From: Aureimonas pseudogalii
GTDB lineage: Bacteria; Pseudomonadota; Alphaproteobacteria; Rhizobiales; Rhizobiaceae
DNA length: 64,000 nt
Reading direction: 5' to 3'
Assembly: GCF_014196835.1 (NCBI RefSeq)
Contig: NZ_JACIEK010000008.1
Location: 1 to 64,000, forward strand
Part shown: positions 328 through 17,873 of the stretch, piece by piece
Numbering within the stretch: position 1 is the stretch's first letter
Layout of the letters: each line of letters opens with the position of its first letter
Position numbers and translations under genes: made by a program
Notes under the pieces: generated by a model
Database searches by the model: none
Seen by the model: the letters and a program-made list of their open reading frames with translations, nothing else
Told to the model about the DNA's origin: nothing

Positions 328-816
328 ATGGTTCGCAAGGTCTTCTTTAGCTTTCACTACAAACGCGACGTTTTTCGGGTCATGCAGGTACGCAACTCCT
401 GGGTCGTGCGGGCGGACGGCGAGGCGCAGCCGTTCTATGACAAGGCCGAATTCGAGGAGGCGAAACGTCGCGCCGGCGGCATCGAGAGGTGGATCGACGA
501 CCAGATGAGGGGGACCTCTGTGACGGTGGTGCTGTTCGGTGCGGAGACCCAAAGCCGCAAATGGGTGAACCATGAGATCAGGCGCAGCCACGACCTCGGG
601 AAGGGAATCCTTGCGATCGACATTCACAAGGTGAAGGACCCAAGACTCGGGGTCGATGCCCGGGGGCTGAACCCGCTCGACTACTGGTCGGCCGGTGACG
701 GCCCCGGCGCGACGCCGTTCAATCGTCTCTACAGCACGTACGACTGGGTGGACGACGACGGCTACCGCAACATGCCTGCCTGGATCGAGGCGGCGGCGCG
801 GGCCTCGGGACGTTGA
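328..816 (+). CDS. ThsB-like TIR protein (DUF1863 / MTH538 type)
   Basis: A 162-residue protein with the start of a DUF1863-type TIR fold, VRKVFFSFHYKRD, at residues 2-14, and the conserved Trp-x-x-x-Glu region WVNHEI near residue 77, where the Glu is the expected NAD-processing residue. TIR proteins of this class in Thoeris (ThsB) make NAD-derived signal molecules on infection. ATG at 328 was chosen over one at 286 because GGAGG lies 5 bases ahead and the fold begins right after it. It is the first gene of a four-gene operon, 7 bases ahead of the next. No SIR2-SLOG ThsA is present, so this is not standard Thoeris; the SLOG protein two genes on is the likely partner (inference). Confidence 0.8.
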   Translation: MVRKVFFSFHYKRDVFRVMQVRNSWVVRADGEAQPFYDKAEFEEAKRRAGGIERWIDDQMRGTSVTVVLFGAETQSRKWVNHEIRRSHDLGKGILAIDIHKVKDPRLGVDARGLNPLDYWSAGDGPGATPFNRLYSTYDWVDDDGYRNMPAWIEAAARASGR

Positions 817-823
817 GGCTGCG

Positions 824-1984
824 ATGAGCGTCTACGAACTCGCCATACTCGGCAGCGCCACGGCGGAGGACCGGCGGCTCCTGACCGGGACCCTGGGCAC
901 CCTCCTAGCCGAGTTCGACCTCGTGATCGGCGACGACGTCGCGGTCCGCGACGGACGGAGCGTCGGGGACCGGAACGACGCAGTCGCGTTCGCCGCCGCC
1001 TACTTCGGCGGGGACAACGCGGACGACGACGGCCCGGCGGCCGACCTCGTGCGCGCCAGCGTGCCGGTGATCCCGACGGTCGCCGCGGACGGGGACTTCG
1101 GGCGCGAGATCCCACCTTTCCTCCAGCCCGCCAACGGACTGCGCCGCAGGGCGGACGATCCCGGGATGAGGGAGCTCGCGACCGCGCTCCTCGAGTGCGT
1201 CGGGCTGCTGCGGCGCCAGCGGCGCGTGTTCGTCAGCTACCGCAGGATCGAGTCCCGGTCCGCCGCGGTCCAGCTTCACGACCTCCTCTCCAGCCGCGGC
1301 TTCGAGGTGTTCCTGGACACCCACGACATACGCCCCGGCGAGCCGTTCCAAGAGGTCCTCTGGCACCGCCTCGTCGACTCCGACGTCATGGTCATGCTGG
1401 ACACGCCGGGATATTTCGACAGCAAGTGGACACGGCAGGAGCTCGGGCGCGCGAGGGCGACCGACATCCAGGTGCTGCGGGTGGTCTGGCCCGCCCACGT
1501 GCCCAACAAGCTCACCGACATGGCCGAGACGATCTACCTCGACGGGAACGAGCTCGAGGGCCCGGAGGGACCGATCGTCGACGAGGTCGCCGACGGGATC
1601 GTGCTCGAGGTGGAACGGCTTCGCAGCCGCAGCATCGCCGCGCGGTACATGGCGATCACCGGGAAACTGAGGGCGGACGCGGAGAAGATCGGCGCCATCG
1701 TCGGGGGCATCGGTGCCCATCGGGCCATCGCCCTGGATTTGCCGGACGGCAAGAAGGTCTGGGCCTATCCGGTGGTCGGCGTGCCGACCGCGGAGATCCT
1801 GAACGACATCGCCGAGAAGTCGCGACGGGCCGACCAGCGGGAGATCCCGGTCCTCGTCTACGACCACGTCGGGATCCGCGAGGCTTGGGGCGCCCACCTG
1901 AAGTGGCTTGACGAGAACATCCGGGCCGTGCGCGCAATCAAGGTATCGGAAGCGGGCTGGACGCTCGCGGCCTGGGAGGCTTGA
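824..1984 (+). CDS. Three-part TIR-domain protein
   Basis: 386 residues. Residues 1-130 form an unassigned alpha/beta domain beginning YELAILGSA. A classical TIR domain follows at about 132-260, with RRVFVSYRR, the BB-loop-like DTHDIRPGE and SKWTRQELGRA, whose Glu near 205 matches the catalytic Glu of NADase TIRs. The C-terminal 120 residues are a further unassigned domain with DLPDGKKVWAYPVVGVPT. ATG at 824 follows the previous stop by 7 bases, and the next gene starts 2 bases after its stop. Stress-related TIR signalling or NAD depletion is inferred from family and context. I recall similar proteins beside SLOG genes elsewhere but could not search. Confidence 0.8.
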   Translation: MSVYELAILGSATAEDRRLLTGTLGTLLAEFDLVIGDDVAVRDGRSVGDRNDAVAFAAAYFGGDNADDDGPAADLVRASVPVIPTVAADGDFGREIPPFLQPANGLRRRADDPGMRELATALLECVGLLRRQRRVFVSYRRIESRSAAVQLHDLLSSRGFEVFLDTHDIRPGEPFQEVLWHRLVDSDVMVMLDTPGYFDSKWTRQELGRARATDIQVLRVVWPAHVPNKLTDMAETIYLDGNELEGPEGPIVDEVADGIVLEVERLRSRSIAARYMAITGKLRADAEKIGAIVGGIGAHRAIALDLPDGKKVWAYPVVGVPTAEILNDIAEKSRRADQREIPVLVYDHVGIREAWGAHLKWLDENIRAVRAIKVSEAGWTLAAWEA

Positions 1985-1986
1985 GC

Positions 1987-2643
1987 GTGGAAGACGTCAT
2001 TTTCCTGTCGGCGAGCGTGCCGGACCAGAAGCGGGCGCCCCGACACGCGTCGACCGCCGACAGCGTCGCGATCTGTTCCGCGGTCTCGGCGCTGGTCCAC
2101 GTCACGCTGGGCCGGCGCGTCCTCGTCTGGGGCGGTCACCCGGCGATCACTCCCATGGTCTGGGTCGTGGCGCAGGACGTCGGGGTCGACTACGGACGCT
2201 GGGTGCGGCTGTACCAGTCCCGCCATTTCGCCGATCAGTTTCCCGAGGACAACCAGCGCTTCCGGAACGTGACCTACACCGACGAGGTCGCGGGCGACCG
2301 GGACAGGAGCCTCGCCGCGATGCGGGAGCGGATGTTCTCCGAACACTCCTTCAAGGCGGCGGTCTTCATCGGCGGCATGGGCGGCATCGTCGAGGAGTAC
2401 GAGATGTTCCGGCGGCTCCAGCCGAAGGCCGCAGTGGTCCCGGTCGTCTCGACGGGCGGGGCGACGCTCGACGTGGCAGAGCGAGCCGGCGACCTTCCCG
2501 TCGAGCTGTCGAGGGAACGGGACTACGTCGCGCTCTTCCATCGACAGCTCGGGATCTCCGTGAGGGAGGAGCGCTTCAGCACCCCCGACGTCCAGCCCGC
2601 CGATCCGGAGCTGCGGTATTGGCGGCCTGGGAACCAGACCTGA
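1987..2643 (+). CDS. Stand-alone SLOG-family nucleotide-sensor protein
   Basis: 218 residues from a GTG start with GGGAGG seven bases upstream; a TTG at 1981 is too close to that site. The protein opens with FLSASVPD, has LVWGGHPAITP near residue 45 and AVFIGGMGGIVEEYE near residue 125, the glycine-rich Rossmann-like signatures of SLOG domains. SLOG domains bind nucleotide-derived ligands; in Thoeris the SLOG part of ThsA senses the TIR product. Here it stands alone without SIR2 or another effector fused, between two TIR genes, so a sensor or processing role for a TIR-made nucleotide is the natural inference. It has no visible membrane segment. Confidence 0.75.
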   Translation: MEDVIFLSASVPDQKRAPRHASTADSVAICSAVSALVHVTLGRRVLVWGGHPAITPMVWVVAQDVGVDYGRWVRLYQSRHFADQFPEDNQRFRNVTYTDEVAGDRDRSLAAMRERMFSEHSFKAAVFIGGMGGIVEEYEMFRRLQPKAAVVPVVSTGGATLDVAERAGDLPVELSRERDYVALFHRQLGISVREERFSTPDVQPADPELRYWRPGNQT

Positions 2644-2652
2644 GGGGGCGCC

Positions 2653-3273
2653 ATGGCTTTCCTTCGAAGGGAGGACATGCGGGCGAGGGCGCACCGTCGG
2701 GCGGGCACGCTCGGGGTGGGCGTGCTGGAGTACCTATGACGGGTCGCCCGACGGCGCCTCGACCGCTACGACATCTTCCTCTCGCAGACGACGCGGGACG
2801 CGGAGATCGTGCTCGGCGTCTACGACCTCCTGACGTCGAAGGGCTACGCCGTCTTCTGCGACTGGATCGACGCGCCCGAGGCAGGCCGAAGCCAAATCAC
2901 GCCCGCGAACGCAGCGTTCGTGAGGGCGACGATGAGCGTGAGCGACACGCTGCTGCTCCTAGACACGCAGGGAGCGGACCAGTCCCTCTGGATGTGCTGG
3001 GAGCTCGGATGGTTCGACGGGGCGAGGGCCCGCGTGGCCGTCCTTCCGGTGCTGTCGGAAAGCGAGCGCTACTACCGGGGCCGCGAGTTCCTGGGACTCT
3101 ACCCCTATGTCGAGCTGGATGCAGACGGGCGCTTGAAGGTCGTCCCGCCCGTCGTGGCTGGGCCGAGCGGCATCAGGATCATCGAGGCGCCGAACTCGAC
3201 AGGCTTCGACTCGTGGCGGGACGATCCGAGCGACACTATGAGGCCGCGCGTGGTCGGCGGCTACGGGCGGTAG
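2653..3273 (+). pseudogene. TIR-domain gene interrupted by an in-frame TGA
   Basis: ATG at 2653 lies 9 bases after the SLOG stop with GAGGGGG just upstream, and opens MAFLRREDMRARAHRRAG, as in TIR proteins of this type. At 2737-2739 there is an in-frame TGA after 28 codons. The same frame then runs on without a break through RYDIFLSQ (TIR strand A), DWIDAPE and LWMCWELGWFDG (the catalytic-Glu region) to a TAG at 3271. The next available start, GTG 2809, would remove strand A. So this is either a nonsense-mutated fourth gene of the operon, a read-through product, or a sequence error. Base composition matches the neighbours, suggesting a recent change. Confidence 0.65.
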
Positions 3274-3757
3274 CTTCCGGGCCGGCCGAGGCGGTGGTGG
3301 CGGTCGACGATCGCCGCGCCCGGCCGGATTGGTGGCACAGGTGCTGGAGGAGTTTCTCGACCCGCCACACGAGCGCGTGCTCGTGGCCGGATCGAAGCGA
3401 CGAAGGAGGCCCGTGACGACGGCCTCTTCCGGGCTCCAGCGCCCGAAGTCGCATCCGCATTCGATGAAACGTGTGTTCCAGACCAGCGATCCGCTGAACC
3501 CGGCACGAAGTTCGGATGCGGCGCAACGAGGAGCGGCGGCGGTCGATGGGTGTCCCGAACACTTCCCGCTGTCGACGACGGACGGCGTGGTGGAGGGAGC
3601 CGCGGGCATCTCGGGGCATTTCGCCCCGGTCACGCTCGCCCATCATGCCCTTCGGGCGCCTACGCCATCTCACTGCGCCAGCGCCGACGCGGCTTGAAGG
3701 CTGCCATCGCCCAACTCTGCGCAGTACAGCGCCTCGGCGAAGGTGATCGCCAGTCGG
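3274..3757. other. 484-base gap between convergent genes, no gene recognised
   Basis: The gap separates the rightward TIR operon from the leftward ATPase gene. Open frames exist on both strands (for example 3329-3697 on plus) but none has a good ribosome binding site or a recognisable domain. It could be the eroded remnant of a gene; nothing firmer can be said. Confidence 0.4.
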
Positions 3758-6700
3758 TCAACCGGCGTCGTACAGCACTCCGACGATCTGGCGCGCCCTA
3801 ACCATTAGGGGAACGTCTCTCGAGCCTTCAACCGCCTCGGTCGCAACGACCAGCGATCCCCCGAGTCCGCCAATGGTCTCGAACTGTCTGAGATGCGACA
3901 AGGATCCTGGCAGCCGGGATCCGACGCGCTTGAAGATGCTCTTCCCATCGTCCAGAGTCACCGCAACGAACTTTCCCTCCCACTGGTCCAGGTCGGCGGC
4001 GGACAGTTCGGCGCCGCCGAGGACAGTCTGGCCCGGCAGAACAAGCGGTACTGCACTGTCCTCCTTGACGCGGTATGCGATCTGCACGCGGCGGAGTTCG
4101 GGGACGTCGTCGACCGCGGCCGCCTCGTTCCGAGCGCCCTCCGGTGGCGGCATGTCCGTGAACACCGCTCCCACGACGCGATGCAGACGAACCTTGCTCT
4201 CGTCGAACGTCATCGTCGAGCGGCTCCTGCGCGGATCCGGCATCTGCGCGGACAGGGACACGCCGGTGGCGCCGGGCGCCCTCACCATCCGGCGGGCCAT
4301 CAACTGGCCCTTCGTCTTTGCCACGACGAGGTTCTGGTCACGGCCCGGATACGGGTCGGCCTCCACGATCACGACCGAACCGGACGGGACGGCAAAGCCG
4401 AGCGAGTCGCCGCGGACGTAGAAGAGGGCCTTGTTGTCGAACCAGCTACCGTCGACCGTCTCCGTCGGCATGTCCTGCGACCCCTCCGGGCCGAAGCTGC
4501 CAGAGAAGGCAGCGAGATCGGGACACACGGGCACGGAGAAGGAAGGCCGGCGCATGGCGGGGAACGGGACGACCGATCCGGTGCCTTCCTCCGCGGGAGT
4601 GAGCGGCTCCCGCCACCTGTGAAGGCGGAACTGTTCGTGCACCTTCTCCACCTCGGTCCGCAGGCGGTGGAAGGCGTCGCGCACCGACAGGACGTCGGCG
4701 TAGCCGATCGAGGCCTTGTCGTGGTGTGACTGGTTCAAGATGCGGCGCGGGGCCGCGCCCTCCGCGAGCGCGGGATCCTCCGCGAACCGGCGCACGACGG
4801 CATGTGAGAACAGGTCGTCGCCTCCCGATGCGACGAGAGCGCGCAAGCGGTCGACGAGCGTGATCAGCGTCGGTGCCCGCGTTTGCCCTGCGTAGGCGGG
4901 ATGGACCGCGTTGTCGAAGAGGTCGCCGAGCCTGGCCTCCATGAACACCCGCAGGTCCGAGGCGTAGTCCTGGGCATCGCGTGCCGAATCCGGGTTGGAA
5001 TCGAAGGCATGGCGCTTGCGGTCGACTTCCTCCACGGCAGGGGCGAGGGCAACGGTGAGACGGTTGGCGTTCACGGGGTGAACGGACAGGTGCAGGACGC
5101 GGTCGTCGCTTCGGCATTCGGCGACCAGCGAGCGGGCGAACTTGCGGTCGTGGGTCGTCACGAGGATCTGTGCGCCGCCCGCGGCCAGCGAGGACAGGCC
5201 CCGGGCCAGGCGTTCTTTGTTGTCGTTGTCCAAAAGCTCCTGCGGGTCGTCGAGGCACAGGAGTGCCAAACCGCCGCGCGTCGCCAGCACGTGCTCACGG
5301 AAGGCCATGAAGAAACCGAGGACGGCGGCACGGAGCGAGGACGCATTGGAGACGTGCTGGGCGGGCGCGGTGACGCCGAGGCGGCCCGCCTGCAACGCCA
5401 GGATCCCGCTCGCGTCCATCCGCGTGTCCGCGAGGGAGGGCGAGAAGGTCGTCGGGTCCATGAAGAACATGCGACGCCAGTGATCTGCGCGCCGGTGCAG
5501 GCGCTCGCGCAGGAGGTCGACCTGCGCCTGCGCGAGCCCGCCGAGCGGCACGAGTTCCCCAAGCGCTGCGGCGGTGCGCTGGCAGAGAGCGATCCTGCCC
5601 CGCTTCGCCTCATGGTTCGCCTGTATCCTCGCCAGCCGACCGACGAGGTCGATCGCCGAGTTGAGCGGGACGGCGTCCCGAACCATGTCCCGTAGCGCGG
5701 ACAATCGCCGACCGACGGCCCTCGACGGCTCCTTCCCGCCCTCGTTCCCGTCCCGAACGGCGATGCAGGCTGATCGCACGGCGGCCGTGTTGGCCCGTAG
5801 CCAGTCCGCAAAGGCCACTGCGCGCACGACTGCGTCGATGGACGTCTGCAACGTCGCGGCCTGGCGCGCCACGGACGGCGGAAGCGGGCGGCGCGTCGGC
5901 TCGTCGAACGGAGGAAGCGCCTCCAGGCATTCCTTCACGAGGTCGGCTGTGTCTGTCCGCAGCGGGGAAAGGATCCCTAGGAAACCCTCGGTCGCGAACA
6001 ACTCGTCGACGAAGCCCTTGCGCAGAAGTTCCGCCGGCGAGGCGGGGAGGGATTTCTTCGCTTCGGATGCGAGCGCCTCCGGCAGCTTGTCCGCCAGCGC
6101 ACCCCGCCAGTGGATGGCCCAGTCTGCCACGGCATGCGCCAGAAACTCGCGTTCCGCCTCCGCCAGATGCGACCCAACCGCCGCGCCGCTCTCGGGATCG
6201 GTGACGCCGTCGAGCGACCGGATGCAGACTGGACAGGTGTCGTCGACGTGCCCGTGCTCGCGCATCCATGATGAGACGCGGGCATAGAGCTGTTCCCTGC
6301 GTGCGCGGTCGGGACTCGCCGCCATCTCGTCGATGGCTCTTGCCTGGCCTTCCAGTTCCGAAAGGAGGGCGAGCGTGTCCTCCCGCGCCGACTCGTCGAC
6401 CTTAAGCGACGACAGCCGCTTGATCGAGGGCAGGTCCGCGAACTTGGCGACTTGGTCCGCGGCCGGGCCTACGTCCTTCTCGAGTCCGTCACGGTCCGTC
6501 TTGCTCTCGGGGTCGAATCCATCGCCGAGGACGTTGCGCGCGTCTCCGAACGCGTCCGCTTTCAAGGATCCGAAGAACTCGGCGGCCGCCGCGAGGCGGT
6601 CCCGGGCATCGGCGTCCGCCGGCTGGGAGAGGCCTCCCCATCGACGCATAGAGGGAGATGTCTCCACGATCCTGTCGAGATCGCCGGCGGCCTCGACATG

Positions 6701-7668
6701 GTGCCGAGCTATCTCTCCCACATCCTCGACCAGCTCCTCGACCAGCTCCTTGACCATCTGCTTGCCAGCGCGCTCGGCAACCTTCCCCGCATGTTTGGAG
6801 AGGTCGACGAGCGCGGCAAGGCCGGTGAGGCGAGCGACGGCCTCGCCCAGCTCCGACGCGCCGCCGACGGCGAGGTGCGGTATGAGGGCGGGCATCACCG
6901 TCGGGATGCGCCAGGCCACGGGGTCAAGGCCGACCGCATCGAGGTCGGGCTCCTCCTCCACGAGCTTGCCGCGGGAGGTGCGCGCCTGCTTCCTCCTCAG
7001 GGGTGCCAGAAGTTCGCCGTCCTCATCCGCGAACGTTACCTCGACCCAGGTGTCCGCAGGCAGCGGCGTCCCGTCGACGGGAAGGGTGTCGGTGGCCCTG
7101 GGCATCGGGGTGACCGACGAGCTGTCGTGCTTCGTGGTCGTCCCGCCGCGGTCGACCTCGCACGGGTATTCCGCCGTCCCGGGCCCTGGCTGCCGCTGGG
7201 AACGGATCAAGTGGCCGGTCAGACACCACAGACCGCGTTCGCGAGCGAGGTCTTGCCGGACCCGTTGACGCCCTCCAGTAGGGTGACCGGCTTGCCTGCG
7301 TCGAAGACGAAATGCGTGTCCTCGCCCGTGCAGCCGTACGAATGGAGACCCGCAAACCGATGCGCTCGGACCCTCGCTAGCCGAAGCACCCGCGTCGGGC
7401 GGGCCACCGCGGGCGGCCGTTCCGAGCGCGCGGGCGGCGGCGCGGCCCCGACGGCGTCGACAATTGCGTCCGCGTCGTCGCCCCGCAGATTGCCGGACCA
7501 TTTGTCGCGGTTGCGGCGGTACCAGTCGAGGGCCGAGCGCGGCCCGTCGTCGAGCGCCAGCGTCGGCCCGTTTTCCAGCGCGACGGTCCGGCCGCCGATC
7601 AAGTCGTCCAGCAACGTCTCGATCGTGAGGAGGTGGAGGGCGACTGCCGTCCGCGGGAGGTCGTTCAT
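3758..7668 (-). pseudogene. SMC/Rad50-like ATPase with tandem LexA/S24-like domains; frameshifted
   Basis: Starts at ATG 7668 with AAGG nine bases upstream. Frame one ends LEGVNGSGKTSLANAVCGV then TGA at about 7219. The protein continues in another frame as CLTGHLIRSQ and onward to TGA 3758. One extra T in the TGTGG at 7226-7230 would give AVCWCLTGH and restore exactly 1304 codons. The restored protein has Walker A near residue 135, coiled regions, a CPVC zinc-hook-like motif near 477, Walker B LLCLDDPQE near 800 and TTHDRKFA after it, i.e. an ABC/SMC-type ATPase. The C-terminus has two LexA/S24-like folds: YVRGDSL (Ser about 1089) and VKEDSAVP (Ser about 1203) with IFKRVG (Lys about 1244). 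It is divergent from the helicase operon. Real frameshift or sequencing error is undecided. Confidence 0.7.
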
Positions 7669-7878
7669 GCGAATCATCCTTTCGTGCGGCATTCTCGACT
7701 TCGGGTTGCGTTCGTGTCCACCGCGCGGGAACGCTCGCCCGAACCGTGACCCGGGCGGCGCTCCCGTGGTTGGCTGATGTTTCGGTCCTGTGGAGGGGAC
7801 AAGCCCGGCTCGTGCGCAGATTGCGTCCGCGAATCCTATGCGCTCTAGTCGACCGAACTTCTGTCCTGTGAGGATTCG
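7669..7878. promoter_or_regulatory. Divergent intergenic region between ATPase and helicase genes
   Basis: These 210 bases must hold the promoters of both divergent transcription units. I could not pick confident -35/-10 boxes or a perfect operator palindrome. If the S24-like domains regulate the cluster, this is where a binding site would be expected. Confidence 0.4.
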
Positions 7879-10800
7879 ATGTCCGAAGCCGAGACCGCCT
7901 CGATCTACCAAAGCAGCCTTCCGATCGAGGAGAAGCTGGAGCGGGCACGGACCGAACTCCTCGACCTCTCGGCCCGCAACCGCCTCCTGAACGTGCCGCG
8001 CATGTCGAAGGCGGCGAAGACGATTGACGTGGTCGACGAGCGATCCGCGGAGGTCTATCGACTGCTCGCCAAAGACGCGAAGGCGTTCACGTTCGCGGCG
8101 GGCCGGCCCGACCGCGGCGCGTCCGGTAAGGGGAACGAGACGGAGGAGGAGGACTTCGCCGCCGTCGACCTCGCGCTGCCGGAGGACGTCGACGAGGCGC
8201 TCGACGAGCAGGGCCGCGCGAAGCGGCACCTCGACACCAAGCTTCAGACGCGGATGACCCCCAAGGGCCTCCAGAAGCGACTCCTCGACCTCTACCACGA
8301 CGCCCGGACGCTGGAGGAGGAGCAGGGCGTGAATGTCCTCTTCCTCGCGCTCGGCATGCTCCGCTGGGTCGACCCGAACAACAAGGAGAACATCCGCCAC
8401 GCTCCGCTCGTCCTCGTGCCGGTCAAGCTGGAGCGCGGCACGGCCGGCGAGCGCTTCCGCCTGCGGGTTCGGCCGGAGGACCAGACGTCGAACCTCTCAC
8501 TCGAAGCCTACCTCGACCGCGTCCACAAGCTCCGTCTTCCGTCCTTCGAGGGCGGCGACGAGTTCGACCCCGACGCCTACTTCCGGGAGGTCACCGAGGC
8601 CGTCTCGACGAAGGACGACTGGTCCGTCCTGCCGGACGACATCGTCCTCGGCTTCTTCTCGTTCTCCAAGTTCCTGATGTACCGGGACCTCGATCCCGAG
8701 AACTGGCCCGCCGACGGGCGCATCACCGACCAGTCGACGATCCGGTCGCTCCTGTCCGATGGTTTCGACGCGGGCGAGCCCCTGCTGTCGGAGGACGAGA
8801 GGATCGACCGCCACATCGATCCTGCCGACATGCTCCACATCGTCGACAGCGACGGGTCGCAGACACTTGCCGTCCACGACGTCCGCCGCGGCCGCGACCT
8901 TGTCATCCAGGGGCCGCCCGGGACGGGCAAGTCCCAGACGATCGCCAACGTCATCGCGTCGGCCGTCACCGACGGGAAGACCGTCCTGTTCGTCGCCGAG
9001 AAGATGGCGGCGCTCGAGGTCGTCAAACGCCGCCTCGACAACGCCGGGGTCGGCGACGCCTGCCTCGAGCTCCACAGCAACAAGGCGAACAAGCGGGGCC
9101 TCCTCGAGGAGCTGCGCCGGACATGGGAGCTCGGCTCGCCACGCGGCGAGTTCCCGTCGAGCCTCGCGGCCAAGCTCCGCGAGGCTCGCGACGTCCTGAA
9201 CCTCCACGCCGAGCGCATGCACGTGTCGCACGCTGCGTCGGGCCTGACGCCCTACCAGGTATTCGGCACCCTGACGAAGCTGCGGCAGGAGGGACAGCGG
9301 CCGGTCGACTTGACGCTCGCGGGCGCGACGGGCTGGACGCCCGACGGTTTGTCGGCGCGGCGACGCCTCCTCGTCGAGCTGACCCAGCGCGTCGACGAGA
9401 TCGGGTTGCCCGTCCGCCACCCATGGCATGGAGTCGGCCTCGACCTCGTCCTGCCGACGACCCTCGAACGGCTGCTGCCGCGCATCGAGGCGCTCCGGTC
9501 GGCCGTTGCCGAACTCGAGATCGAGTACGAGGAACTGGCGGGGACGCTGGAACTGGAGCCGAAGCCCGACACCTTCGCGGCGGCAGCCACCCTGTGCGAG
9601 CGCGCGGACATCCTGGCCCGTGCGCCCGACCTATCGCCTGAGGCGCTCCGGGCCGGGGCTTGGGATGATCGGTGCGGGGCGATCGCCGCTCTCGTGACCG
9701 CGGGCGCGGACTTCCGGCGGCAGGGTGAATCCTTGGGCGACGCGGTCCATCCGTTGGCGCTCGGCACCTCCATCGAAGGACTGGAGGCCCAGCTCGCCTG
9801 GCTGCCGCGCGACTTCCCCGCGGCGGCGTTCGGCCGGGCCGCGGAGCTCGTGGACCTGCTTCCGCGCCTGCGTGCCGAGGCCGACCGGCTCGCCTCCGAA
9901 CTCGGTGTCCCGGGCCCGGTCGACACGCTCGCCGCCGTCTCCCGCCTCATAACGACGGGCGAGCGCGTGGCCGCCGCCCCCGACGCCAGCCCCGAGGCCT
10001 TCGCGGCCACTGTCTGGGACCAGGGCATCGAGCAGGCGGGCGACCTCGCGGAGGCCGTCGAGACGCTCGAGCGCGCGCGCGCGACGATGGGCGACCGAAT
10101 CCTCGACGTCGCCTGGACGACCGAGGTCTCTGCCGCCCGTCAGGCGCTGGCGACGAACACCGGGTTCCTGAAGTCGCTCAACGGCGACTACCGGAAGGCG
10201 AAGGCGCTGGTCCGCTCCATCCTGCGCAACCCCGACATGCCGACGCAGGAGGTCGTCGACCTCCTCGACACGCTGACGAAGGGGCAGGCCTCCGCCAGGC
10301 GTGTGCGCGACGACGACGCCTTCGGACGCTCCGCGTTCGGCGCCGACTGGCGCGGCGAGCGCTCCGCGTCCGCTCCGCTTCTCGCCCTCGTCGCCTGGAT
10401 GCGCACGCTGCGTGGCCTCGGCGCGGAGCCGCGCCTCATCGCCGGACGGCTCGCCGAGCGTCAGGTCGTGGGCGAGCACGCCGCGCTGGTCCTTCGTCAC
10501 GTCGACGTCGCCAAGCCGCTGCTCGAGACGCTCTGGACGAACCTTGGCCCCTCGGCCGGCCCCGCGTTCGCCGACGCCGTATCTGCCGACCGCGCGTCCC
10601 TCGACCTTGTCGAGGCCCGGGCCCGCAACCTCGCCTGGGCCGATGGCCTCTGCCGCGAGATCATGCGCACCGTTCCCGATGGCCTCCCCGACCGCCTTGG
10701 CGTCGTCGCGCGCGTCGCGGCTTGGCAGGCGGCCGCCCGGTCTCTCGACGAGCGTGCCGACCTCGGCGGTGAGGCGTTCGGCCCCGCTTGGCGAGGCAAG

Positions 10801-13602
10801 GATTCGGACTGGAACGCTCTGGCGGCAGCCGTCGAGTGGATCGGGGCGCACGGCGACCTTCGGCACCTCGCCGCGCGCCTGCCCGACCGAGCCGCGGTCG
10901 CGGAGCGGGCGGGACGTGCCGTCGCCGCATCCGACGCGGCGCAGGGCACGCTGGCGGAGGTCGCCGCCTTCCTGATGGCCGACGCCCGGAGCCTGTTTGG
11001 CGCCGACGGCTACGGCGACGTGGCGCTCGCGCGTTGCTGCGAACGGATGGAGGCCTGGCTCGACAACTCCGAACAGCTCTCGAAGTGGGTTTCCTACCGC
11101 GACCGGGCCGACCGTGCACGCGCGGACGGCATGTCCGTGTTCGTCGACCAACTCGAGGACGGCCGCCTGTCGACGCCCGAGACGCTTCCCTCGTTCGAGA
11201 TCGCGTACCACGAGGCGATCCTCGACGAGCTGATCCGGGCCAATCCCGAACTCGGCCGCTTCGACGGCAACCTCCACGGTCGCCAAGTGCGTGAGTTCGC
11301 GAACCTCGACCGCGAGCGCATCAAGGCGGCGAGCCTCGAGGTGGTGCGCGCCCACCATCGCCGCATCCCGCCGCGCGACGGCGGCGTCGGTCCGGTCGGC
11401 ATCCTGCGCGGTGAGATGGCCAAGCGCAGCCGCCACATGCCGATCCGCCAGCTCATGCAGAAGGCGGCCCCCGCCGTCCAGGCGCTGAAGCCGGTCATGA
11501 TGATGAGTCCTCTGTCCGTCGCACAGTTCCTGACGCCGGGCAGGCTCACCTTCGACCTGCTCGTCATGGACGAGGCCTCGCAGATCCAGCCTGTCGACGC
11601 GCTGGGCGCCATCGCCCGCGCCCGGCAGGTTGTCGTTGTCGGGGATGAACGCCAGCTCCCGCCGACCAAGTTCTTCTCGAAGATGACAGGCGGGGGCGAC
11701 GAGGACGACGACGAGGACGGCGCGCGCGTCGGTGACATCGAGAGCATCCTCGGGCTGTTCACCGCCCGTGGCTTACCGCAACGCATGCTCCGCTGGCACT
11801 ACCGCAGCCGCCACCAGTCGCTGATCGCGGTCTCCAACACGCAGTTCTACCAGAACAAGCTCTTCATCGTGCCGAGTCCCTATACGACCGAGGCCGGGAT
11901 GGGGCTGCGCTTCCACCACGTTCCCGACGGTGTCTTCGATTCCGGCGGCACGTCCGTGAACGCCGTCGAGGCGAGGGTCGTCGCCGAGGCGGTCATCCGG
12001 CACGCCAAGACGAACCCCGAGCAGTCGCTCGGCGTCGCGACCTTCTCGGTTTCCCAGAGGCGGGCGATTCAGGACGAGGTAGAACTCCTCCGCCGCCTGA
12101 ACCCCGACACAGAGGAGTTCTTCCACTTCCATCCGTCGGAGCCGTTCTTCGTCAAGAACCTCGAGAACGTGCAAGGCGACGAGCGCGACGTGATCATGAT
12201 CTCGGTCGGCTACGCCAAGAACGCGCAAGGCACCATGGCCATGCGGTTCGGCCCCCTCGGGGCGCAGGGCGGCGAGCGGCGCCTGAACGTCCTCATCTCT
12301 CGCGCCAAGCGGCGCTGCGAGGTCTACGCCTCGATCACCGACGAGGACATCGACGTCGAGCGCGGCAAGGGTGCTGGCATCCTCGCGTTCAAGCTCTTCC
12401 TCCACTATGCGAGGACGGGCCGGCTCTCCATCGCGCAGGCCACCGGCCGCGACATGGACAGCGTGTTCGAGGAACAGGTCGCGAGCGCGCTCCAGGCGAA
12501 GGGCTACCAAGTCCATCCGCAGGTTGGCATCGCCGGGTTCTTCATCGACCTCGCCGTGTCCGATCCCGAGCGCCCGGGGCGCTACCTAATTGGCATCGAG
12601 TGCGACGGCGCGTCCTACCATTCCTCGCGCTCGGCCCGCGACCGTGACCGCCTGCGCCAGGCGGTGCTGGAGGACCACGGCTGGATCATTCACCGCGTCT
12701 GGAGCACTGACTGGTTCCAGCGCCCGCAGGAGCAGCTCGATCGCACCGTAGCCGCGATCGAAGCGGCGAAGGCGAAGCTGGACGAGCGCATGGAGCGTGG
12801 CCTCGCCGCCCATCGCGCGGTGCCGATCGAGATCGTCACGGTCGATCGCGGCGAGGTGACGGAGGTCGGGCTCGGCGACGCCGTCCCCGAGGAGCGCGCG
12901 GCTGCCACGGCCTACGTCGAGGCGACGTTGACCCGCCCCGGACCGTATGACCTGCACGAGACCCCCGTCGGGCGGATGGCGGACCTCGTGACGCAGGTCG
13001 TGCAGGTCGAGTCCCCCGTCCACGTCGACGAGGTCGTCGCCCGCGTCCGCGACGCGTTCGGGCTCCAGCGCGCGGGCGCACGGATCCAGGCTGCCGTCGA
13101 GCAAGGCGTCGAGCGGGCGGTGGTGCATGGCGGTATCGTGCGCACGGGCGACTTCCTCTCGGACGCCGACGCTACCATCGTGGTACGCGACCGTCGCAAC
13201 GCGTCGTCCGGTGGCCTCCGAAAGGTCGAGATGCTTCCCCCGTCGGAACTTGAGACCGGGGTTCTCGCGATCGTAGTCGAGAACCTGGGTGCGACGGACG
13301 ACGAGGTCGTGCGCATGCTGTCGCGGATGGTAGGACTTCGGTCGAGCAACTCGCAGCTCAGGTGGGCCATCGTATCGGTGATCGCTGACCTGATCGACAG
13401 GAAGTTGGTCGACAGGAAAGACGGGATGCTCGTTGCGAGCTCTGCACCGGTCTCTGGATTGGCCGCGACGGTGGTCAGGCGGGAAGGCGCCGACGGAACG
13501 ACTGGAGGCACCGGATCGGTCGGCGGCCCGGAGACGGAGGACGCTTCGAATGCCGGGGACGTCCGAGACGGTGCGGTTTCCCATGCATCTATGGAGGCCT
13601 GA
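7879..13602 (+). CDS. DUF4011 SF1 helicase fused to Vsr/DUF559-like nuclease and DUF3320
   Basis: 1907 residues; ATG 7879 with GAGGA five bases upstream. Order: N-terminal DUF4011 (ARTELLDLSARNRLLNVPR near residue 18), Walker A QGPPGTGKSQT near 345, a roughly 800-residue insert, Walker B VMDEASQIQP near 1230, motif III VGDERQLPPT near 1255, and C-terminal SF1 motif RLNVLISRAKRR near 1475. A PD-(D/E)XK-like nuclease of the MTES_1575/DUF559/Vsr type follows at about 1535-1620 (FIDLAV, IGIECDGASYHSS, RVWSTDW). DUF3320 (VDEVVARVRDAFGLQRAG) is near 1715. This architecture is known in defence islands (as I recall, close to the system named Hhe). DNA translocation and cleavage is inferred. It is followed 3 bases later by the GHKL-nuclease gene. 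Confidence 0.88.
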   Translation: MSEAETASIYQSSLPIEEKLERARTELLDLSARNRLLNVPRMSKAAKTIDVVDERSAEVYRLLAKDAKAFTFAAGRPDRGASGKGNETEEEDFAAVDLALPEDVDEALDEQGRAKRHLDTKLQTRMTPKGLQKRLLDLYHDARTLEEEQGVNVLFLALGMLRWVDPNNKENIRHAPLVLVPVKLERGTAGERFRLRVRPEDQTSNLSLEAYLDRVHKLRLPSFEGGDEFDPDAYFREVTEAVSTKDDWSVLPDDIVLGFFSFSKFLMYRDLDPENWPADGRITDQSTIRSLLSDGFDAGEPLLSEDERIDRHIDPADMLHIVDSDGSQTLAVHDVRRGRDLVIQGPPGTGKSQTIANVIASAVTDGKTVLFVAEKMAALEVVKRRLDNAGVGDACLELHSNKANKRGLLEELRRTWELGSPRGEFPSSLAAKLREARDVLNLHAERMHVSHAASGLTPYQVFGTLTKLRQEGQRPVDLTLAGATGWTPDGLSARRRLLVELTQRVDEIGLPVRHPWHGVGLDLVLPTTLERLLPRIEALRSAVAELEIEYEELAGTLELEPKPDTFAAAATLCERADILARAPDLSPEALRAGAWDDRCGAIAALVTAGADFRRQGESLGDAVHPLALGTSIEGLEAQLAWLPRDFPAAAFGRAAELVDLLPRLRAEADRLASELGVPGPVDTLAAVSRLITTGERVAAAPDASPEAFAATVWDQGIEQAGDLAEAVETLERARATMGDRILDVAWTTEVSAARQALATNTGFLKSLNGDYRKAKALVRSILRNPDMPTQEVVDLLDTLTKGQASARRVRDDDAFGRSAFGADWRGERSASAPLLALVAWMRTLRGLGAEPRLIAGRLAERQVVGEHAALVLRHVDVAKPLLETLWTNLGPSAGPAFADAVSADRASLDLVEARARNLAWADGLCREIMRTVPDGLPDRLGVVARVAAWQAAARSLDERADLGGEAFGPAWRGKDSDWNALAAAVEWIGAHGDLRHLAARLPDRAAVAERAGRAVAASDAAQGTLAEVAAFLMADARSLFGADGYGDVALARCCERMEAWLDNSEQLSKWVSYRDRADRARADGMSVFVDQLEDGRLSTPETLPSFEIAYHEAILDELIRANPELGRFDGNLHGRQVREFANLDRERIKAASLEVVRAHHRRIPPRDGGVGPVGILRGEMAKRSRHMPIRQLMQKAAPAVQALKPVMMMSPLSVAQFLTPGRLTFDLLVMDEASQIQPVDALGAIARARQVVVVGDERQLPPTKFFSKMTGGGDEDDDEDGARVGDIESILGLFTARGLPQRMLRWHYRSRHQSLIAVSNTQFYQNKLFIVPSPYTTEAGMGLRFHHVPDGVFDSGGTSVNAVEARVVAEAVIRHAKTNPEQSLGVATFSVSQRRAIQDEVELLRRLNPDTEEFFHFHPSEPFFVKNLENVQGDERDVIMISVGYAKNAQGTMAMRFGPLGAQGGERRLNVLISRAKRRCEVYASITDEDIDVERGKGAGILAFKLFLHYARTGRLSIAQATGRDMDSVFEEQVASALQAKGYQVHPQVGIAGFFIDLAVSDPERPGRYLIGIECDGASYHSSRSARDRDRLRQAVLEDHGWIIHRVWSTDWFQRPQEQLDRTVAAIEAAKAKLDERMERGLAAHRAVPIEIVTVDRGEVTEVGLGDAVPEERAAATAYVEATLTRPGPYDLHETPVGRMADLVTQVVQVESPVHVDEVVARVRDAFGLQRAGARIQAAVEQGVERAVVHGGIVRTGDFLSDADATIVVRDRRNASSGGLRKVEMLPPSELETGVLAIVVENLGATDDEVVRMLSRMVGLRSSNSQLRWAIVSVIADLIDRKLVDRKDGMLVASSAPVSGLAATVVRREGADGTTGGTGSVGGPETEDASNAGDVRDGAVSHASMEA

Positions 13603-13605
13603 CCG

Positions 13606-15366
13606 TTGACCGGTGCCAAGGCCAGGTTCCAGGTCGACACGCGCCTCGCTCGCCTTTTGGGTGAAGGGTATCGATCAAGCGAGCTCGCGCTGCGTGAGCT
13701 CGTCGACAACGCTTGGGACGCGGACGCGCCCAACGTCTGGGTCACGCTGCCCGAGGCTCTCAGCGGGGATCCCGTCGTCGTGCGCGACGACGGCGTCGGC
13801 ATGACGTCGGCGGCCTTGCGCAATGAGTACCTGAAGATCGCCGGCGACCGACGTCTCCGAGCAGGTGCGGTCACGCCTGGACGCAAACGCAGGGTCAAGG
13901 GTCGCAAGGGCATAGGCAAGTTCGCGGGACTCCTCCTCGCGGGCGAGATGCGGATCGATACGGTGTCCGGCGGCGTGAGGAGCAGCGTCCTTATCGACAA
14001 GCGGATCCTGCTCGAAACCGATCGGGACCTCGAGACCGTCGACCTTCCGCTCGAGGAGACCGTGGCTGCGCCGGGTGAGAAAGGAACGACCGTCACCTTG
14101 TCTGCCCTCGAGGACCGTCTGAACTTCCCGGTTGCGGACAAGCTGCGCGAAATCCTCGTCCGCGAGTACGCGCGGCAGGACGACTTCTCCGTCAGCGTCA
14201 ACGGAAAGAAGCTGACGATCGAGGACGTTCCCGGGACTACTTCCCGAGCAGCGGAGAACCTCCCCGCCGCCGGGGCGGTCGACCTGCGTTTCACGGTGGC
14301 AGGAGGCAAGGGCAAGCATGGGCGTCCTGGCATCGTCGTTCGGGTCGACGGGAAGAGTGTGGGCGAGCCTTCGATGTTCGGACTCGAAGAGGACGAGGAT
14401 ATCCCGGGCAAGTTGGCGCGCCGGGTCTTCGGCGAGATCGAGGTCAACGGGAACGACGACTTTGTTGCCGCAGACTGGGGCGGGCTGAACGAGAGCAGCA
14501 AGGCCTACGCGGAGATAGCCGAGTTCGTTCGCCGGCAGGTGAAGGCTGCCCTGAAAGCTGCGTTCGCAAACGACATGAGCCTTCAGCGCGCCCGCATCGC
14601 GAAGCGGCTCCAGGAGCGCATCGCCGCACTGCCTGAGTTCAGGAGAAAGTATGCGGAGGAGGCCATCCGCCGGATACTCGTCCGTTTCTATGAGGAGAGT
14701 GCCGACCGTATCGAGGCCATTGCCGACGTCGCGCTCGACGCCATCGAGTACGATGCCTACTGGGACATCCTTCAGCGTATCAGCGCCGCGAGCAAGGCCG
14801 AGGTCAGCGACTTCGCGGACTCGCTGGCCGAATTCGGGATCTTGGAACTCTCCGCCATCGGCCGGCAGGCATCCGTGCGGCTTCGCTTCCTCGACATGCT
14901 GGAGGAGCTGGTCCTGCGGAAGGAGACGCTGGAGGCCGACGTCCACAGGGCGATCGAGACGAACCTGTGGGTCCTCGGACGTGGCTACGCGACGATGTCT
15001 TCCAACCGGACTTTGCGGGACATCCTGCGGCGCTTCGGCCGCGACGAACCGGAAGCGTTGCGGGCGGCCAAGCGGCCGGATCTTCTCCTAGGCCAGGCGT
15101 CCGACGGCACCAAGACGCTCATCGAGTTCAAGCGTCCCGCGCACGCCATCGACCGCAACGACGTCGCACAGGCGGAAGCGTACCGGGACGATCTCGGCCG
15201 TCAGCTTCCGTTGGGGGGCATCCGTATCCTGATGCTGGGCAGAGGGCCGCTTGCGACACTGGACGTGACGAGGCTCGCCCCCGATGTGCAGATCCAATCC
15301 TACCTCGGACTGATCTCGTCGGCGCGCGACGAGCTGGAATGGATCCTGAAGGGCATCGGCGACTGA
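13606..15366 (+). CDS. GHKL (MORC/Hsp90-like) ATPase with C-terminal PD-(D/E)XK nuclease
   Basis: 586 residues from TTG 13606, with GGAGG at 13593-13597, three bases after the helicase stop. The N-terminal GHKL ATPase has the N box ELALRELVDNAWDAD near residue 28, the G1 box VRDDGVGM near 60 and the GRKGIGKFAG lid near 100. A helical middle region follows. The C-terminus has RPDLLLG near 490 and TLIEFKRP near 505, the D...ExK pattern of PD-(D/E)XK nucleases of the Shedu/DUF4263 sort. A nucleotide-driven clamp that licenses DNA cutting is a reasonable inference. Tight coupling to the helicase gene suggests one complex or pathway. Confidence 0.8.
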   Translation: MTGAKARFQVDTRLARLLGEGYRSSELALRELVDNAWDADAPNVWVTLPEALSGDPVVVRDDGVGMTSAALRNEYLKIAGDRRLRAGAVTPGRKRRVKGRKGIGKFAGLLLAGEMRIDTVSGGVRSSVLIDKRILLETDRDLETVDLPLEETVAAPGEKGTTVTLSALEDRLNFPVADKLREILVREYARQDDFSVSVNGKKLTIEDVPGTTSRAAENLPAAGAVDLRFTVAGGKGKHGRPGIVVRVDGKSVGEPSMFGLEEDEDIPGKLARRVFGEIEVNGNDDFVAADWGGLNESSKAYAEIAEFVRRQVKAALKAAFANDMSLQRARIAKRLQERIAALPEFRRKYAEEAIRRILVRFYEESADRIEAIADVALDAIEYDAYWDILQRISAASKAEVSDFADSLAEFGILELSAIGRQASVRLRFLDMLEELVLRKETLEADVHRAIETNLWVLGRGYATMSSNRTLRDILRRFGRDEPEALRAAKRPDLLLGQASDGTKTLIEFKRPAHAIDRNDVAQAEAYRDDLGRQLPLGGIRILMLGRGPLATLDVTRLAPDVQIQSYLGLISSARDELEWILKGIGD

Positions 15367-15663
15367 CGCGCCGCTGCGTCCCGATGTTGCCGGCCGTAGG
15401 TATGGCCAAAAACTCGGATGCGTGCGGAACAGCGTATGCGCGTCCTCACCCCTTTGCCGCTGCCGCAGGCGGACTACCGCTCCCGGCTTCGTCGGCGGCA
15501 CTCTCTACTCATCTGCAACTGCCGCCGCTGTCCGGTAACGCAGACTTGATTTCTGTGCCAAGGAAAAACCCTAACCTGAGGAGAATGGGTAATTTCGGCT
15601 TTGCCGTACTTTGCGAGGTCCTGGCGTCGTGACGCATACGGGATCGACCACGCCTGTGCGTCC
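15367..15663. other. Gap between convergent genes
   Basis: About 300 bases between the GHKL-nuclease stop and the methyltransferase stop. No gene is recognised. It contains a partial copy of the methyltransferase 3' end, listed separately. Confidence 0.5.
15439..15499 (-). repeat. Partial duplicate of the methyltransferase 3' end
   Basis: This stretch resembles 15659-15713 closely: both share CGTCCTCA, then GCCGCAGGCGGA, then CCGCTCCCGG and CGTCGGC in the same order. On the minus strand it reads ADEAGSGSPPAAAAKG and stop, against ADGAGSGVPPAAKI and stop at the end of the intact methyltransferase, with the stop codon in the same place. It is a decayed duplicate of the gene end, or the scar of a second methyltransferase copy. 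Confidence 0.5.
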
Positions 15664-17709
15664 TCATATTTTCGCCGCAGGCGGAACGCCGCTCCCGGCC
15701 CCGTCGGCAGCGGCCTGTGCCACGCGCTCCTTATCGAGGCTCCCCCAGTACCAGACGTAGTGCTCCAGCTCGGCTTCCTCGCGGTCGTCGCCCTCGTGGG
15801 GCGGATAGACGCTCTCGTGCGGGAACTCGCCCTCGTTCTCGCGAAGAAGGATCGACGACGTCGCCGCCAGCTTCCTGATCCGGAGGTCCCGCGTTTGGGG
15901 CAGCAGGGCGGACGCGGGAGGTCTCGGCTCGCGCGGCGTGCCGTCGGCGTTCGTCGACCGCACGGGTTCGAGCCGGAACCGGGTACCCTGCAAACTGATC
16001 GCGCGGCCCGGGTCGTGATGGATGCCCGTCAGCGCGGTCGCGACCGCACAGCCAAGGTGCAGCGCCACGACGGGCGGAAACGCGTTGCCGATCTGGCGGT
16101 AGACGGGATGCCTATCGCCGCGGAACTTCCAGTCGGCCGGAAACCCTTGCAGCGCAGCGATCAGCCCGTTCGCCGGAAGGATGGGTCCGTCGTGTCCGGG
16201 CGCCGGGGGAAGCTCGCCCCATCGGGTGGTGATGAGCGTCATCGCCCTCCACTTCTCCGCCGTCTTTCGCTGGCCGAAATCCATGCTCTCCTTCTTCGTG
16301 CTGCCACCGAGAATCGTCGGGGCAACGCAGTCGAACGCGTCCGTAACCTCGTCCGAGGGGACGTATCCGCCCGAACGTAGCCACCAGTCGATCGCACCGA
16401 TCACCGGATAGGGTTCGTCCTTGTAGTGGGCTACGGCCTCGGGCCACCTGAAGCGTGACATGGCGTCGGCCTCCAGGAAACCGACGAGGATCGTGCGGAC
16501 GCGTGTCTGGGGAATGCCGAACCAGGCGCAACGCACCTTCCGCCACTCGCAGGCATAGCCCAGCTTGCCGAGCCTGCCGAGGATGCGGTGGCGGTACATG
16601 TCGTAATCGGGGCCGAAGAGGCCCTCGACGTTCTCCAGCATGACGGCGCGCGGCTTCATGCGCTCGATCAGCCGCAACGCCTCGGGGAAGCAATCGCGGT
16701 CGTCGTCCTCGCCGTTCCGTTTCGACGACGCCTTCGAGAAGCTCTGGCAGGGCACGCCCCCTGCGAAGAGGTCGATCGGGCCGACATCGCCCGGGTCGTA
16801 GCCGACGAGGTTGGCCTCGATGACGTGATCGGCGCCGAAGTTCGCGCGCAGCGTCTCGCAGGCGTCGGGATCCATTTCCAACATCCCGACATGCTGGAAC
16901 CCAGCCTTTGACAGGCCGCAAGCCTGGCCGCCGCCACCCGCGCAGACCTCGAAGCTCGTGAGGCCGTGCTTGAACGGCGTGCTGATCGAGGTGAGGGCGC
17001 GGCGCCGCTGGTTTGCCGTCCGGGTGTCGGGAGCGGCTTCCGGCGCGGGCGCCGTGGCCTTGGGTTCCTCGACATTGCCGAAGTTCGCGAACCTCTCGAC
17101 CAGTCCGTGCGCCGACTCCTCGAGCTGACCGGACTTGCGCGCTTTCGCAAAATCCTCCAGGGCCCGGGAGAGAACGCGGATTCCATCTTCGCTCGACGGG
17201 TCTCCTATCCACGTCATTGCGACGAGTTGGAGTGAAAGCGGGCGTGCGCCCTTGGCGAGGTCGAGTAGGGCGGGAGAGTGGGTTTCCAGAGCGGAATTGA
17301 TTTCCGCGACCAGGCGACCGAGGCGACCGGCGACGTCGGACGCATGCGAGTTGGCCGCCTTTCGGAAAGCGGGCAATCCCGACGTTGCCGACTTTCTGGT
17401 CTCGCCCGACGAGACCACGATCTTCATTTCGTCGGCGTTGATGCGCCTCCCGGACCGGAGCGAATGCAATGCGGCCTCCCGACCTTCGGGTTTTGCGGAG
17501 GCGAGGATCACCGCGGCCGAAGGTGTCAGCTTCTGTTTGACCAGAAACTTCCGATGCCCCGATAGGTGGCGTGCCACCTTCCGATAGCCAAGGACGGTCC
17601 GCGGCTCGATCTTGCACTCGTGCCGGACCCAAGCGCCGAAACTGCCCTTCAGCAACCCCGCCGCTTCTTCAACGTGCTGGGCGGACCGCTCGATCGAGCG
17701 AGGCCGCAT
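15664..17709 (-). CDS. DNA (cytosine-5) methyltransferase with long N-terminal domain
   Basis: 681 residues from ATG 17709; there is no strong ribosome binding site, so the start is tentative. Catalytic motifs appear in order: I (FEVCAGGGGQACGL, about 251), IV (GGVPCQSFS, catalytic Cys about 320), VI (MLENVEG, about 355), VIII (QTRVRTILVGF) and X (QIGNAFPPVVALHLG, about 538). The first 240 residues are a helical region beginning HVEEAAGLLKGSFGAWV, perhaps a DUF3102-like DNA-binding part. No restriction endonuclease gene adjoins it in the usual arrangement. Possible roles are self-protection for the neighbouring nuclease cluster or a solitary epigenetic function (inference). It is convergent with the GHKL-nuclease gene. 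Confidence 0.92.
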   Translation of the reverse strand: MRPRSIERSAQHVEEAAGLLKGSFGAWVRHECKIEPRTVLGYRKVARHLSGHRKFLVKQKLTPSAAVILASAKPEGREAALHSLRSGRRINADEMKIVVSSGETRKSATSGLPAFRKAANSHASDVAGRLGRLVAEINSALETHSPALLDLAKGARPLSLQLVAMTWIGDPSSEDGIRVLSRALEDFAKARKSGQLEESAHGLVERFANFGNVEEPKATAPAPEAAPDTRTANQRRRALTSISTPFKHGLTSFEVCAGGGGQACGLSKAGFQHVGMLEMDPDACETLRANFGADHVIEANLVGYDPGDVGPIDLFAGGVPCQSFSKASSKRNGEDDDRDCFPEALRLIERMKPRAVMLENVEGLFGPDYDMYRHRILGRLGKLGYACEWRKVRCAWFGIPQTRVRTILVGFLEADAMSRFRWPEAVAHYKDEPYPVIGAIDWWLRSGGYVPSDEVTDAFDCVAPTILGGSTKKESMDFGQRKTAEKWRAMTLITTRWGELPPAPGHDGPILPANGLIAALQGFPADWKFRGDRHPVYRQIGNAFPPVVALHLGCAVATALTGIHHDPGRAISLQGTRFRLEPVRSTNADGTPREPRPPASALLPQTRDLRIRKLAATSSILLRENEGEFPHESVYPPHEGDDREEAELEHYVWYWGSLDKERVAQAAADGAGSGVPPAAKI

Positions 17710-17873
17710 CGTGGCTATGCGTAACGGACCATCGGCGACTGTCGGGTCACAGCCTCGATCATCCACGTCTTCGCGTCCGACACCTTCCGATCGACAGTTC
17801 GTGCGATGCGGGCGCGGGCGTTAACTTGATCTTGGATGGCCCCTGGCTCATATTTCGATCAGGAGAACCGAAG

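What the first reader, a model, noticed from the sequence alone, without database searches (positions are those of the whole stretch)
3758..15366. Divergent three-gene cluster: S24-tailed SMC-like ATPase, giant DUF4011 helicase-nuclease, GHKL-nuclease
The proteins combine an SMC/Rad50-like ATPase with LexA-like domains, an SF1 helicase with a Vsr-like nuclease, and a MORC-like ATPase with a PD-(D/E)XK nuclease. Single components are known from defence islands (the helicase resembles Hhe), but I do not know this trio as a named system. Two nucleases, two translocase-like ATPases and a peptidase-like switch suggest DNA-damage or phage-genome sensing tied to cleavage.
Basis: partly seen in the sequence, partly recalled or inferred. 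Interest (0 to 1): 0.78.

Follow-up and report, generated by a model that had tools for sequence, protein, structure and literature searches.

The report
Two stacked defence blocks, not trio
The three neighbouring genes are real and look like virus defence, but comparison with relatives shows two separate blocks standing side by side: a known helicase-nuclease with a second nuclease behind it, and an unnamed DNA-clamp-like protein with a LexA-like tail.

Summary
The three ORFs and their domains are confirmed, but they are not one system. The giant helicase (7879-13602) passes NCBIfam's cut-off for anti-phage protein ProA and matches PADLOC PDC-S37; it is below the Hhe cut-off. Relatives split the trio into two blocks. 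Block B (7806-15370, helicase plus GHKL-nuclease) is one 88%-identical stretch in a same-genus genome without an SMC match (E<=1e-50). Block A (SMC-like gene, 3755-7727) occurs in close relatives without the other two. All three together: 0 of 62 SMC loci, 0 of 26 helicase loci outside the window, 0 of 13 GHKL loci. The window's SMC copy is frameshifted just after Walker A; 46 of 55 relatives checked read open. The most novel part is this SMC/Rad50-like protein: not named by four libraries, no fixed partner, and a tail of two LexA-like domains, the second with Ser (46 of 46) and Lys (45 of 45) in LexA's catalytic register (weak sequence similarity). The cluster lies in a defence island with Thoeris III, a Dcm methylase and CBASS. 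Function is inferred, not tested.

The parts
3758..7668 (-). Block A: SMC/Rad50-like ATPase gene with a LexA-like tail, interrupted by a frameshift in this copy
   Evidence: DNA homology with close relatives covers up to 3755-7727
7219..7668 (-). N-terminal piece with AAA_23; ends at a stop after Walker A
7246..7272 (-). Walker A of the SMC-like protein (GxNGxGKTS)
   Evidence: the fixed columns are conserved in 44-45 of 46 rows, the S/A/C position is free
6224..6235 (-). CxxC pair (zinc-hook-like, by recall), both Cys in 46 of 46 homologues
5228..5251 (-). Walker B region; DDPQ and the last Asp in 46 of 46
4193..4459 (-). First LexA/S24-like domain; Ser position mostly Thr/Asn (Ser in 9 of 46), Lys position Arg in 45 of 46
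3761..4195 (-). Second LexA/S24-like domain; Ser (46 of 46) and Lys (45 of 45 without gap) in LexA's register
7879..13602 (+). Block B: DUF4011 helicase - MTES_1575 nuclease - DUF3320 protein, ProA / PDC-S37
12466..12759 (+). REase_MTES_1575 nuclease domain of the helicase protein
13606..15366 (+). Block B: GHKL ATPase with C-terminal PD-(D/E)XK-like nuclease
14932..15132 (+). Nuclease motif of the GHKL protein (E443, D492, E507, K509)
7806..15370 (+). Stretch shared as one 87.9%-identical block with same-genus genome G794, which has no SMC match at E<=1e-50
15664..17766 (-). C5 cytosine methyltransferase; a 44-46% relative is divergent to the helicase in L067 and L186

Best explanation
The cluster is two independently inherited defence blocks stacked in one island. 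Block B is a ProA-type protein (Prometheus, by name) with a second nuclease gene coupled behind it: the helicase would load on and move along invading DNA and cut with its own nuclease domain, and the GHKL protein would close as an ATP-driven clamp and cut with its PD-(D/E)XK domain. Block A is a stand-alone SMC/Rad50-like protein: dimeric ATPase heads and a coiled coil with a CxxC pair would engage foreign DNA or DNA ends, and the tail, a degenerate LexA-like domain followed by one with an intact Ser-Lys pair, would act as a switch by self-cleavage or by cleaving a partner. In this genome Block A is probably inactive, because its frame is broken after Walker A. Shown here: domains, block boundaries, absence of the trio in the loci examined, conserved residues. 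Inferred: every step of action.
For: Block B shared without Block A: G794 holds helicase (92%) and GHKL (83%), one continuous DNA match over window 7806-15370, and no SMC match at E<=1e-50. Helicase without either: G781 and G787 carry it at 88% with no SMC or GHKL match at E<=1e-50. Block A without B: 51 of 52 genome SMC loci show no helicase relative (tblastn E<=1e-5) in the fetched flanks; two close SMC genes (L068 84%, L069 88%) share DNA with the first 30 kb of the window only over 3757-7727 and 3859-7726. No recurrent partner: SMC neighbour clusters peak at IS3-type genes (9 of 62 loci) and SbcD-like genes (6 of 62); among 91 nearest neighbours no PADLOC or Pfam family matched more than 3. 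Helicase above the ProA cut-off. Rad50-like head: profile hits, AAA_23 and SMC_N in 39 of 39 homologues, Foldseek. LexA-like tail: with all homologues, 0 of 100 column shuffles reach either domain's score.
Against: SMC gene and helicase do share an island in one close relative (L067, 86-87%), at the same ribonucleotide-reductase locus in another arrangement, and distant versions do in Mesorhizobium AR10. GHKL-type ATPases sit next to the SMC gene now and then: L106 at 25%, and 2 of 91 nearest neighbours carry HATPase_c_3. Many SMC loci have short flanks, so co-occurrence can be missed. The helicase-GHKL pair is known from two species only. The LexA kinship of the tail is weak: hhalign probabilities are 12% and 34%; smaller alignments were reached by 4 and 44 of 100 shuffles; the Pfam score is below gathering; PDB profile searches with the tail found no S24 protein. 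Foldseek TM-scores by query for the head are only 0.17-0.19 in the top hits. No activity was tested.
Confidence: 0.75

Rival explanations
1. The three genes form one defence system: the SMC-like sensor recruits the helicase-nuclease and GHKL-nuclease.
For: Divergent, tightly packed layout in the window; SMC and helicase also share an island in L067.
Against: Trio in 0 of 62 SMC, 0 of 26 helicase and 0 of 13 GHKL loci; G794 has B without A; the layout in L067 differs.
Confidence: 0.04
2. Block B plus the Dcm-type methylase is a restriction-modification-like module: methylation marks self DNA, and the helicase-nuclease and GHKL nuclease cut unmarked DNA, as proposed for MORC-type systems (Iyer et al. 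2008, PMC2292703; abstract and passages seen).
For: A C5 methylase lies near the helicase in 3 of 5 close copies (window, L067, L186; not L184, L185), divergent to it in two. The paper's passages report MORC genes with cytosine methylases, Vsr-superfamily nucleases and superfamily II helicases.
Against: Methylase near 2 of 26 helicase loci outside the window and 0 of 13 GHKL loci; the window's methylase is only 44-46% identical to the other two, which are 72% identical to each other, and it is placed differently; the helicase here is SF1-type by Pfam, not SF2.
Confidence: 0.25
3. The SMC-like protein works as an accessory to SbcC/SbcD-like nuclease pairs, and loci without them are remnants or use a pair elsewhere in the genome.
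For: SbcC- or SbcD-like genes near 8 of 62 SMC loci: 3 of 52 genome loci, 5 of 10 plasmid loci.
Against: 54 of 62 show none in the fetched stretch; full-length open SMC genes occur in such loci.
Confidence: 0.1
4. The SMC-like protein is a DNA-repair or plasmid-maintenance factor, not defence.
For: Closest folds are Rad50, Lamassu and SMC proteins; relatives on 21 plasmid records.
Against: Patchy presence: 1 of 21 genus genomes (own), 3 of 385 class genomes (own included, one a tail match only). Defence-type neighbours such as Shedu and AbiEii in annotated records and PtuA-type models for 3 of 91 nearest neighbours.
Confidence: 0.12

Closest known systems
ProA (NCBIfam NF058533; link to the Prometheus system is by name) / PADLOC PDC-S37
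   Same: The helicase passes the ProA cut-off (1624.9 against 1500 bits) and matches PDC-S37 at 1874.2 bits.
   Different: A GHKL-nuclease gene follows 3 bp behind it here and in G794; 25 of 26 helicase loci outside the window show none.
Hhe
   Same: DUF4011 helicase with related helicase and nuclease regions (1054 bits).
   Different: Below Hhe's 2000-bit cut-off.
Lamassu LmuB and Rad50/SMC ATPases
   Same: Head and coiled-coil organisation: Foldseek's first hits are Rad50 (7zr1) and the Lamassu LmuACB entry 9hqu (low TM-scores); weak LmuB profile hit (E 1e-6).
   Different: LexA-like tandem tail, about 1300 aa in L067, no recurrent partner gene in 62 loci.
LexA / Peptidase S24
   Same: The second tail domain aligns with its Ser and Lys on those of LexA.
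   Different: C-terminal to an SMC-like ATPase; the first domain lacks the pair; Pfam score below gathering.
MORC/paraMORC GHKL proteins; BbrUII/HgiDII restriction enzymes
   Same: GHKL module and restriction-type nuclease motif (BbrUII model 142.9 bits; Foldseek hits TRAP1/Hsp90 first and MORC4 at ranks 33 and 35).
   Different: Far below BbrUII's 550 cut-off; no methylase near 13 GHKL loci and a DEAD helicase near 2 of 13.

Membership tests
ProA (Prometheus) | Score above NF058533 curated cut-off of 1500 bits | tested here: met
   1624.9 bits
ProA (Prometheus) | Gene composition of the named system | not testable with these tools
   No defining paper found; in 23 helicase loci the commonest neighbour cluster reached 5
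Hhe | Score above NF042953 cut-off of 2000 bits | tested here: not met
   1054 bits
Lamassu | LmuB-type SMC together with LmuA effector and LmuC | tested here: not met
   LmuB hit E 1e-6 only; no LmuA or LmuC in the rows shown for the 10 window proteins scanned (one protein's list was cut at 25 of 60); no fixed partner in 62 loci
SMC/Rad50 ATPase superfamily | Walker A, Walker B and Rad50-like head | tested here: met
   in homologues; the window copy is split and the TM-scores are low
Peptidase S24/LexA | S24 profile match above gathering score | tested here: not met
   21.7 against 23.3 bits; 8 of 39 homologues match at E<=0.01
Peptidase S24/LexA | Ser-Lys pair in LexA register | tested here: met
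   Second domain, Ser 46 of 46 and Lys 45 of 45; peptidase activity not testable here
BbrUII/HgiDII restriction enzyme | Score above NF050001 cut-off of 550 bits | tested here: not met
   142.9 bits
MORC-type restriction-modification | GHKL ATPase, nuclease, methylase and SF2 helicase in one neighbourhood | tested here: inconclusive
   GHKL, nuclease, methylase and a helicase lie together in the window and L186, not in the 13 other GHKL loci; the helicase is SF1-type

The most novel reading that the evidence does not exclude
Block A is an unnamed single-gene defence family: an SMC/Rad50-like DNA sensor whose own LexA-type peptidase domain fires when the ATPase heads engage phage DNA, so that a proteolytic switch sits on a DNA clamp.
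Probability: 0.27. Interest if true: 0.72.

Novelty: new variant of a known kind. Interest (0 to 1): 0.42.

Why it matters
It shows how a defence island can look like one new system when it is a stack of separate units, and gives block boundaries that decide it. It also points to a family of full-length SMC/Rad50-like proteins, by record titles mainly in Proteobacteria with single finds in Acidobacteria, Nitrospira and others, with a conserved LexA-type residue pair and no name in the four libraries searched: a direct test of whether proteolysis can be wired to an SMC-type DNA sensor.

Tried and rejected
Rejected: the trio as a system; Hhe membership; BbrUII membership; a fixed SbcCD partner for the SMC gene; the Dcm gene as a fixed partner. 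Programmed frameshifting was thought unlikely because relatives mostly read open: of 55 homologues checked, 46 are open over the stretch, 2 more (L077, L094) stop only at its very end, 7 carry internal stops (7 of the 62 loci were not put to this check). Literature: the paper that defines Prometheus was not found; the name is used for a defence system in passages of PMC12629846, PMC12390725, PMC13356809 and PMC12846349, the last two of which tie it to DefenseFinder. One search for S24-tailed SMC defence proteins listed six papers, none of which by title and start of abstract describes this (none was opened). PMC2292703: abstract and passages.

Led nowhere: whole-model fold searches showed head matches only in the 50 rows listed; PDB profile searches with the tail; hhalign with the smaller tail alignments.
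Full report
Observation. The SMC-like gene (minus strand, 3758 to about 7668) is split: its N-terminal piece with AAA_23 and Walker A stops at 7219, and the rest continues in another frame. The helicase (7879-13602) carries DUF4011, AAA_11/AAA_12 helicase parts, an MTES_1575 nuclease and DUF3320; the GHKL gene (13606-15366) starts 3 bp behind it. The genes lie in a defence island: ThsB-like TIR, ThcB4 and ThcA of Thoeris type III to the left, a C5 methylase and a CBASS set (SAVED, E1-E2, CD-NTase) to the right, then a class II ribonucleotide reductase gene.

Known models. The helicase scores 1624.9 bits with NCBIfam ProA (cut-off 1500), 1054 with Hhe (cut-off 2000), and 1874.2 with PADLOC PDC-S37. 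Prometheus is used as a defence-system name in passages of four papers; that ProA belongs to it rests on the name, and its definition was not found. The GHKL protein is far below BbrUII's cut-off (142.9 against 550). The SMC-like protein matches no family above its cut-off except AAA_23 and only weak or partial models in PADLOC and PHROGs.

Co-occurrence, SMC side: 52 genome loci and 10 of 21 plasmid records. A window-type helicase lies near 1 of 52 (L067, Mangrovicella, 86%), a distant one near 1 of 10 (Mesorhizobium AR10, about 36%), a 25% GHKL protein near 1 of 52, all three together in 0 of 62. One more distant SMC locus, L144, has neither. Helicase side: 26 loci outside the window, namely 16 from the class search, 5 plasmid loci, 3 same-genus loci, and L057 and L067, which entered through their SMC genes. 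GHKL is near 1, SMC near 2 (those same L057 and L067), methylase near 2, SbcC/SbcD near 2. GHKL side: 13 loci, SMC in 0, close helicase in 0; L012 has a 34% partial helicase about 9 kb away. G794 is counted on the helicase side; with it, 1 of 14 GHKL loci has the helicase. Two of the 13 have a DEAD helicase divergent to the GHKL gene, a PDC-S28 match for L010. Within the genus (21 genomes) SMC is in 1, the helicase at 88% or more in 4 (five others have 40-44% partial matches), GHKL in 2. Flanks were cut by contig ends in many loci, so these counts are lower bounds for linkage.

Block boundaries. In G794 the DNA from window 7806 to 15370 matches as one stretch at 87.9% that ends just outside the helicase-GHKL pair on both sides. 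In L068 and L069 the SMC gene matches over 3757-7727 and 3859-7726, with no other DNA match to the first 30 kb of the window. In L067 SMC, helicase, methylase and ribonucleotide reductase gene are all present but ordered otherwise. G781 and G787 carry the helicase without either partner. So the SMC gene and the helicase-GHKL pair are inherited separately.

SMC-like family. Across 46 aligned homologues the two Cys of a CxxC, DDPQ with a following Asp, and the Ser of the second tail domain are in 46 of 46; the second-domain Lys in 45 of 45 without a gap; the first domain has Ser in 9 of 46 and Arg at the Lys position in 45 of 46. Against an alignment of ten LexA proteins and two S24 paralogues from the genome and its relatives, the first domain gives E 0.0026 (probability 12%) and the second E 0.00044 (34%), and 0 of 100 column shuffles reach either score; with the smaller alignments 44 and 4 of 100 shuffles reach it. 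In the alignment of the second domain its Ser and Lys fall on LexA's. Pfam S24 is found in 8 of 39 members at E<=0.01; in the one member shown it covers the first domain. PDB profile searches with either tail domain gave no S24 hit. The predicted structure of L067's protein (39 sequences, mean pLDDT 84.1, pTM 0.50) has Rad50 and Lamassu entries as first Foldseek hits, with TM-scores by query of 0.16-0.19 for the first six; no tail match was among the 50 rows shown. The catalytic roles of LexA's Ser and Lys are recalled, not from a call.

Partners of the SMC gene. The commonest neighbour clusters are IS3-type genes (9 of 62; named after the annotation in L060) and SbcD-like genes (6 of 62; 8 of 62 counting tblastn hits to SbcC or SbcD). 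Among 91 nearest neighbours from the genome loci (at least 150 aa, within 3 kb, one per side), no PADLOC or Pfam family matched more than 3, two carry HATPase_c_3, and 202 PADLOC models matched at least one protein at E<=1e-10, PtuA-type ATPases among them. No control set of neighbours of ordinary genes was scanned. This fits a stand-alone gene in defence-rich places.

GHKL protein. The nuclease motif E443, D492, E507, K509 is invariant in 11 of 11 sequences. Iyer et al. 2008 (PMC2292703, abstract and passages) describe such GHKL genes with cytosine methylases, Vsr-type nucleases and SF2 helicases; Block B beside a methylase resembles that plan, but with an SF1-type helicase.

Verdict. Two independent blocks, one a known protein with an add-on nuclease, the other an unnamed SMC/Rad50-like family with a LexA-like tail and a broken copy here. 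Defence and mechanism are inferences from domains and neighbours.

Noticed in passing
window 286-3273: Thoeris-type genes: ThsB-like TIR, ThcB4 (472.5 bits, cut-off 220), ThcA (261.8 bits, cut-off 110) and a second ThsB-like piece.
   Followed up: partly
window 18515-23998: CBASS-like set: SAVED-HNH-type effector, E1-E2 protein and CD-NTase.
   Followed up: partly
window 24192-28055; L067 5389-9264: A class II ribonucleotide reductase gene flanks the island in both genomes (1 of 52 SMC loci outside the window), which suggests an insertion hotspot.
   Followed up: partly
L057 49-15522: Mesorhizobium AR10 has SbcC-like and SbcD-like genes divergent from a ProA helicase (2144 bits), followed by an SMC-like gene of the window's family.
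   Followed up: partly
L130 5028-15570: SbcD-like, SbcC-like and ProA-type helicase genes in one same-strand row.
   Followed up: no
L010 9019-13749; L011 8997-13749: GHKL-nuclease gene divergent from a DEAD/DEAH helicase that matches PDC-S28 (1106.7 bits for L010; L011's is 98% identical).
   Followed up: no
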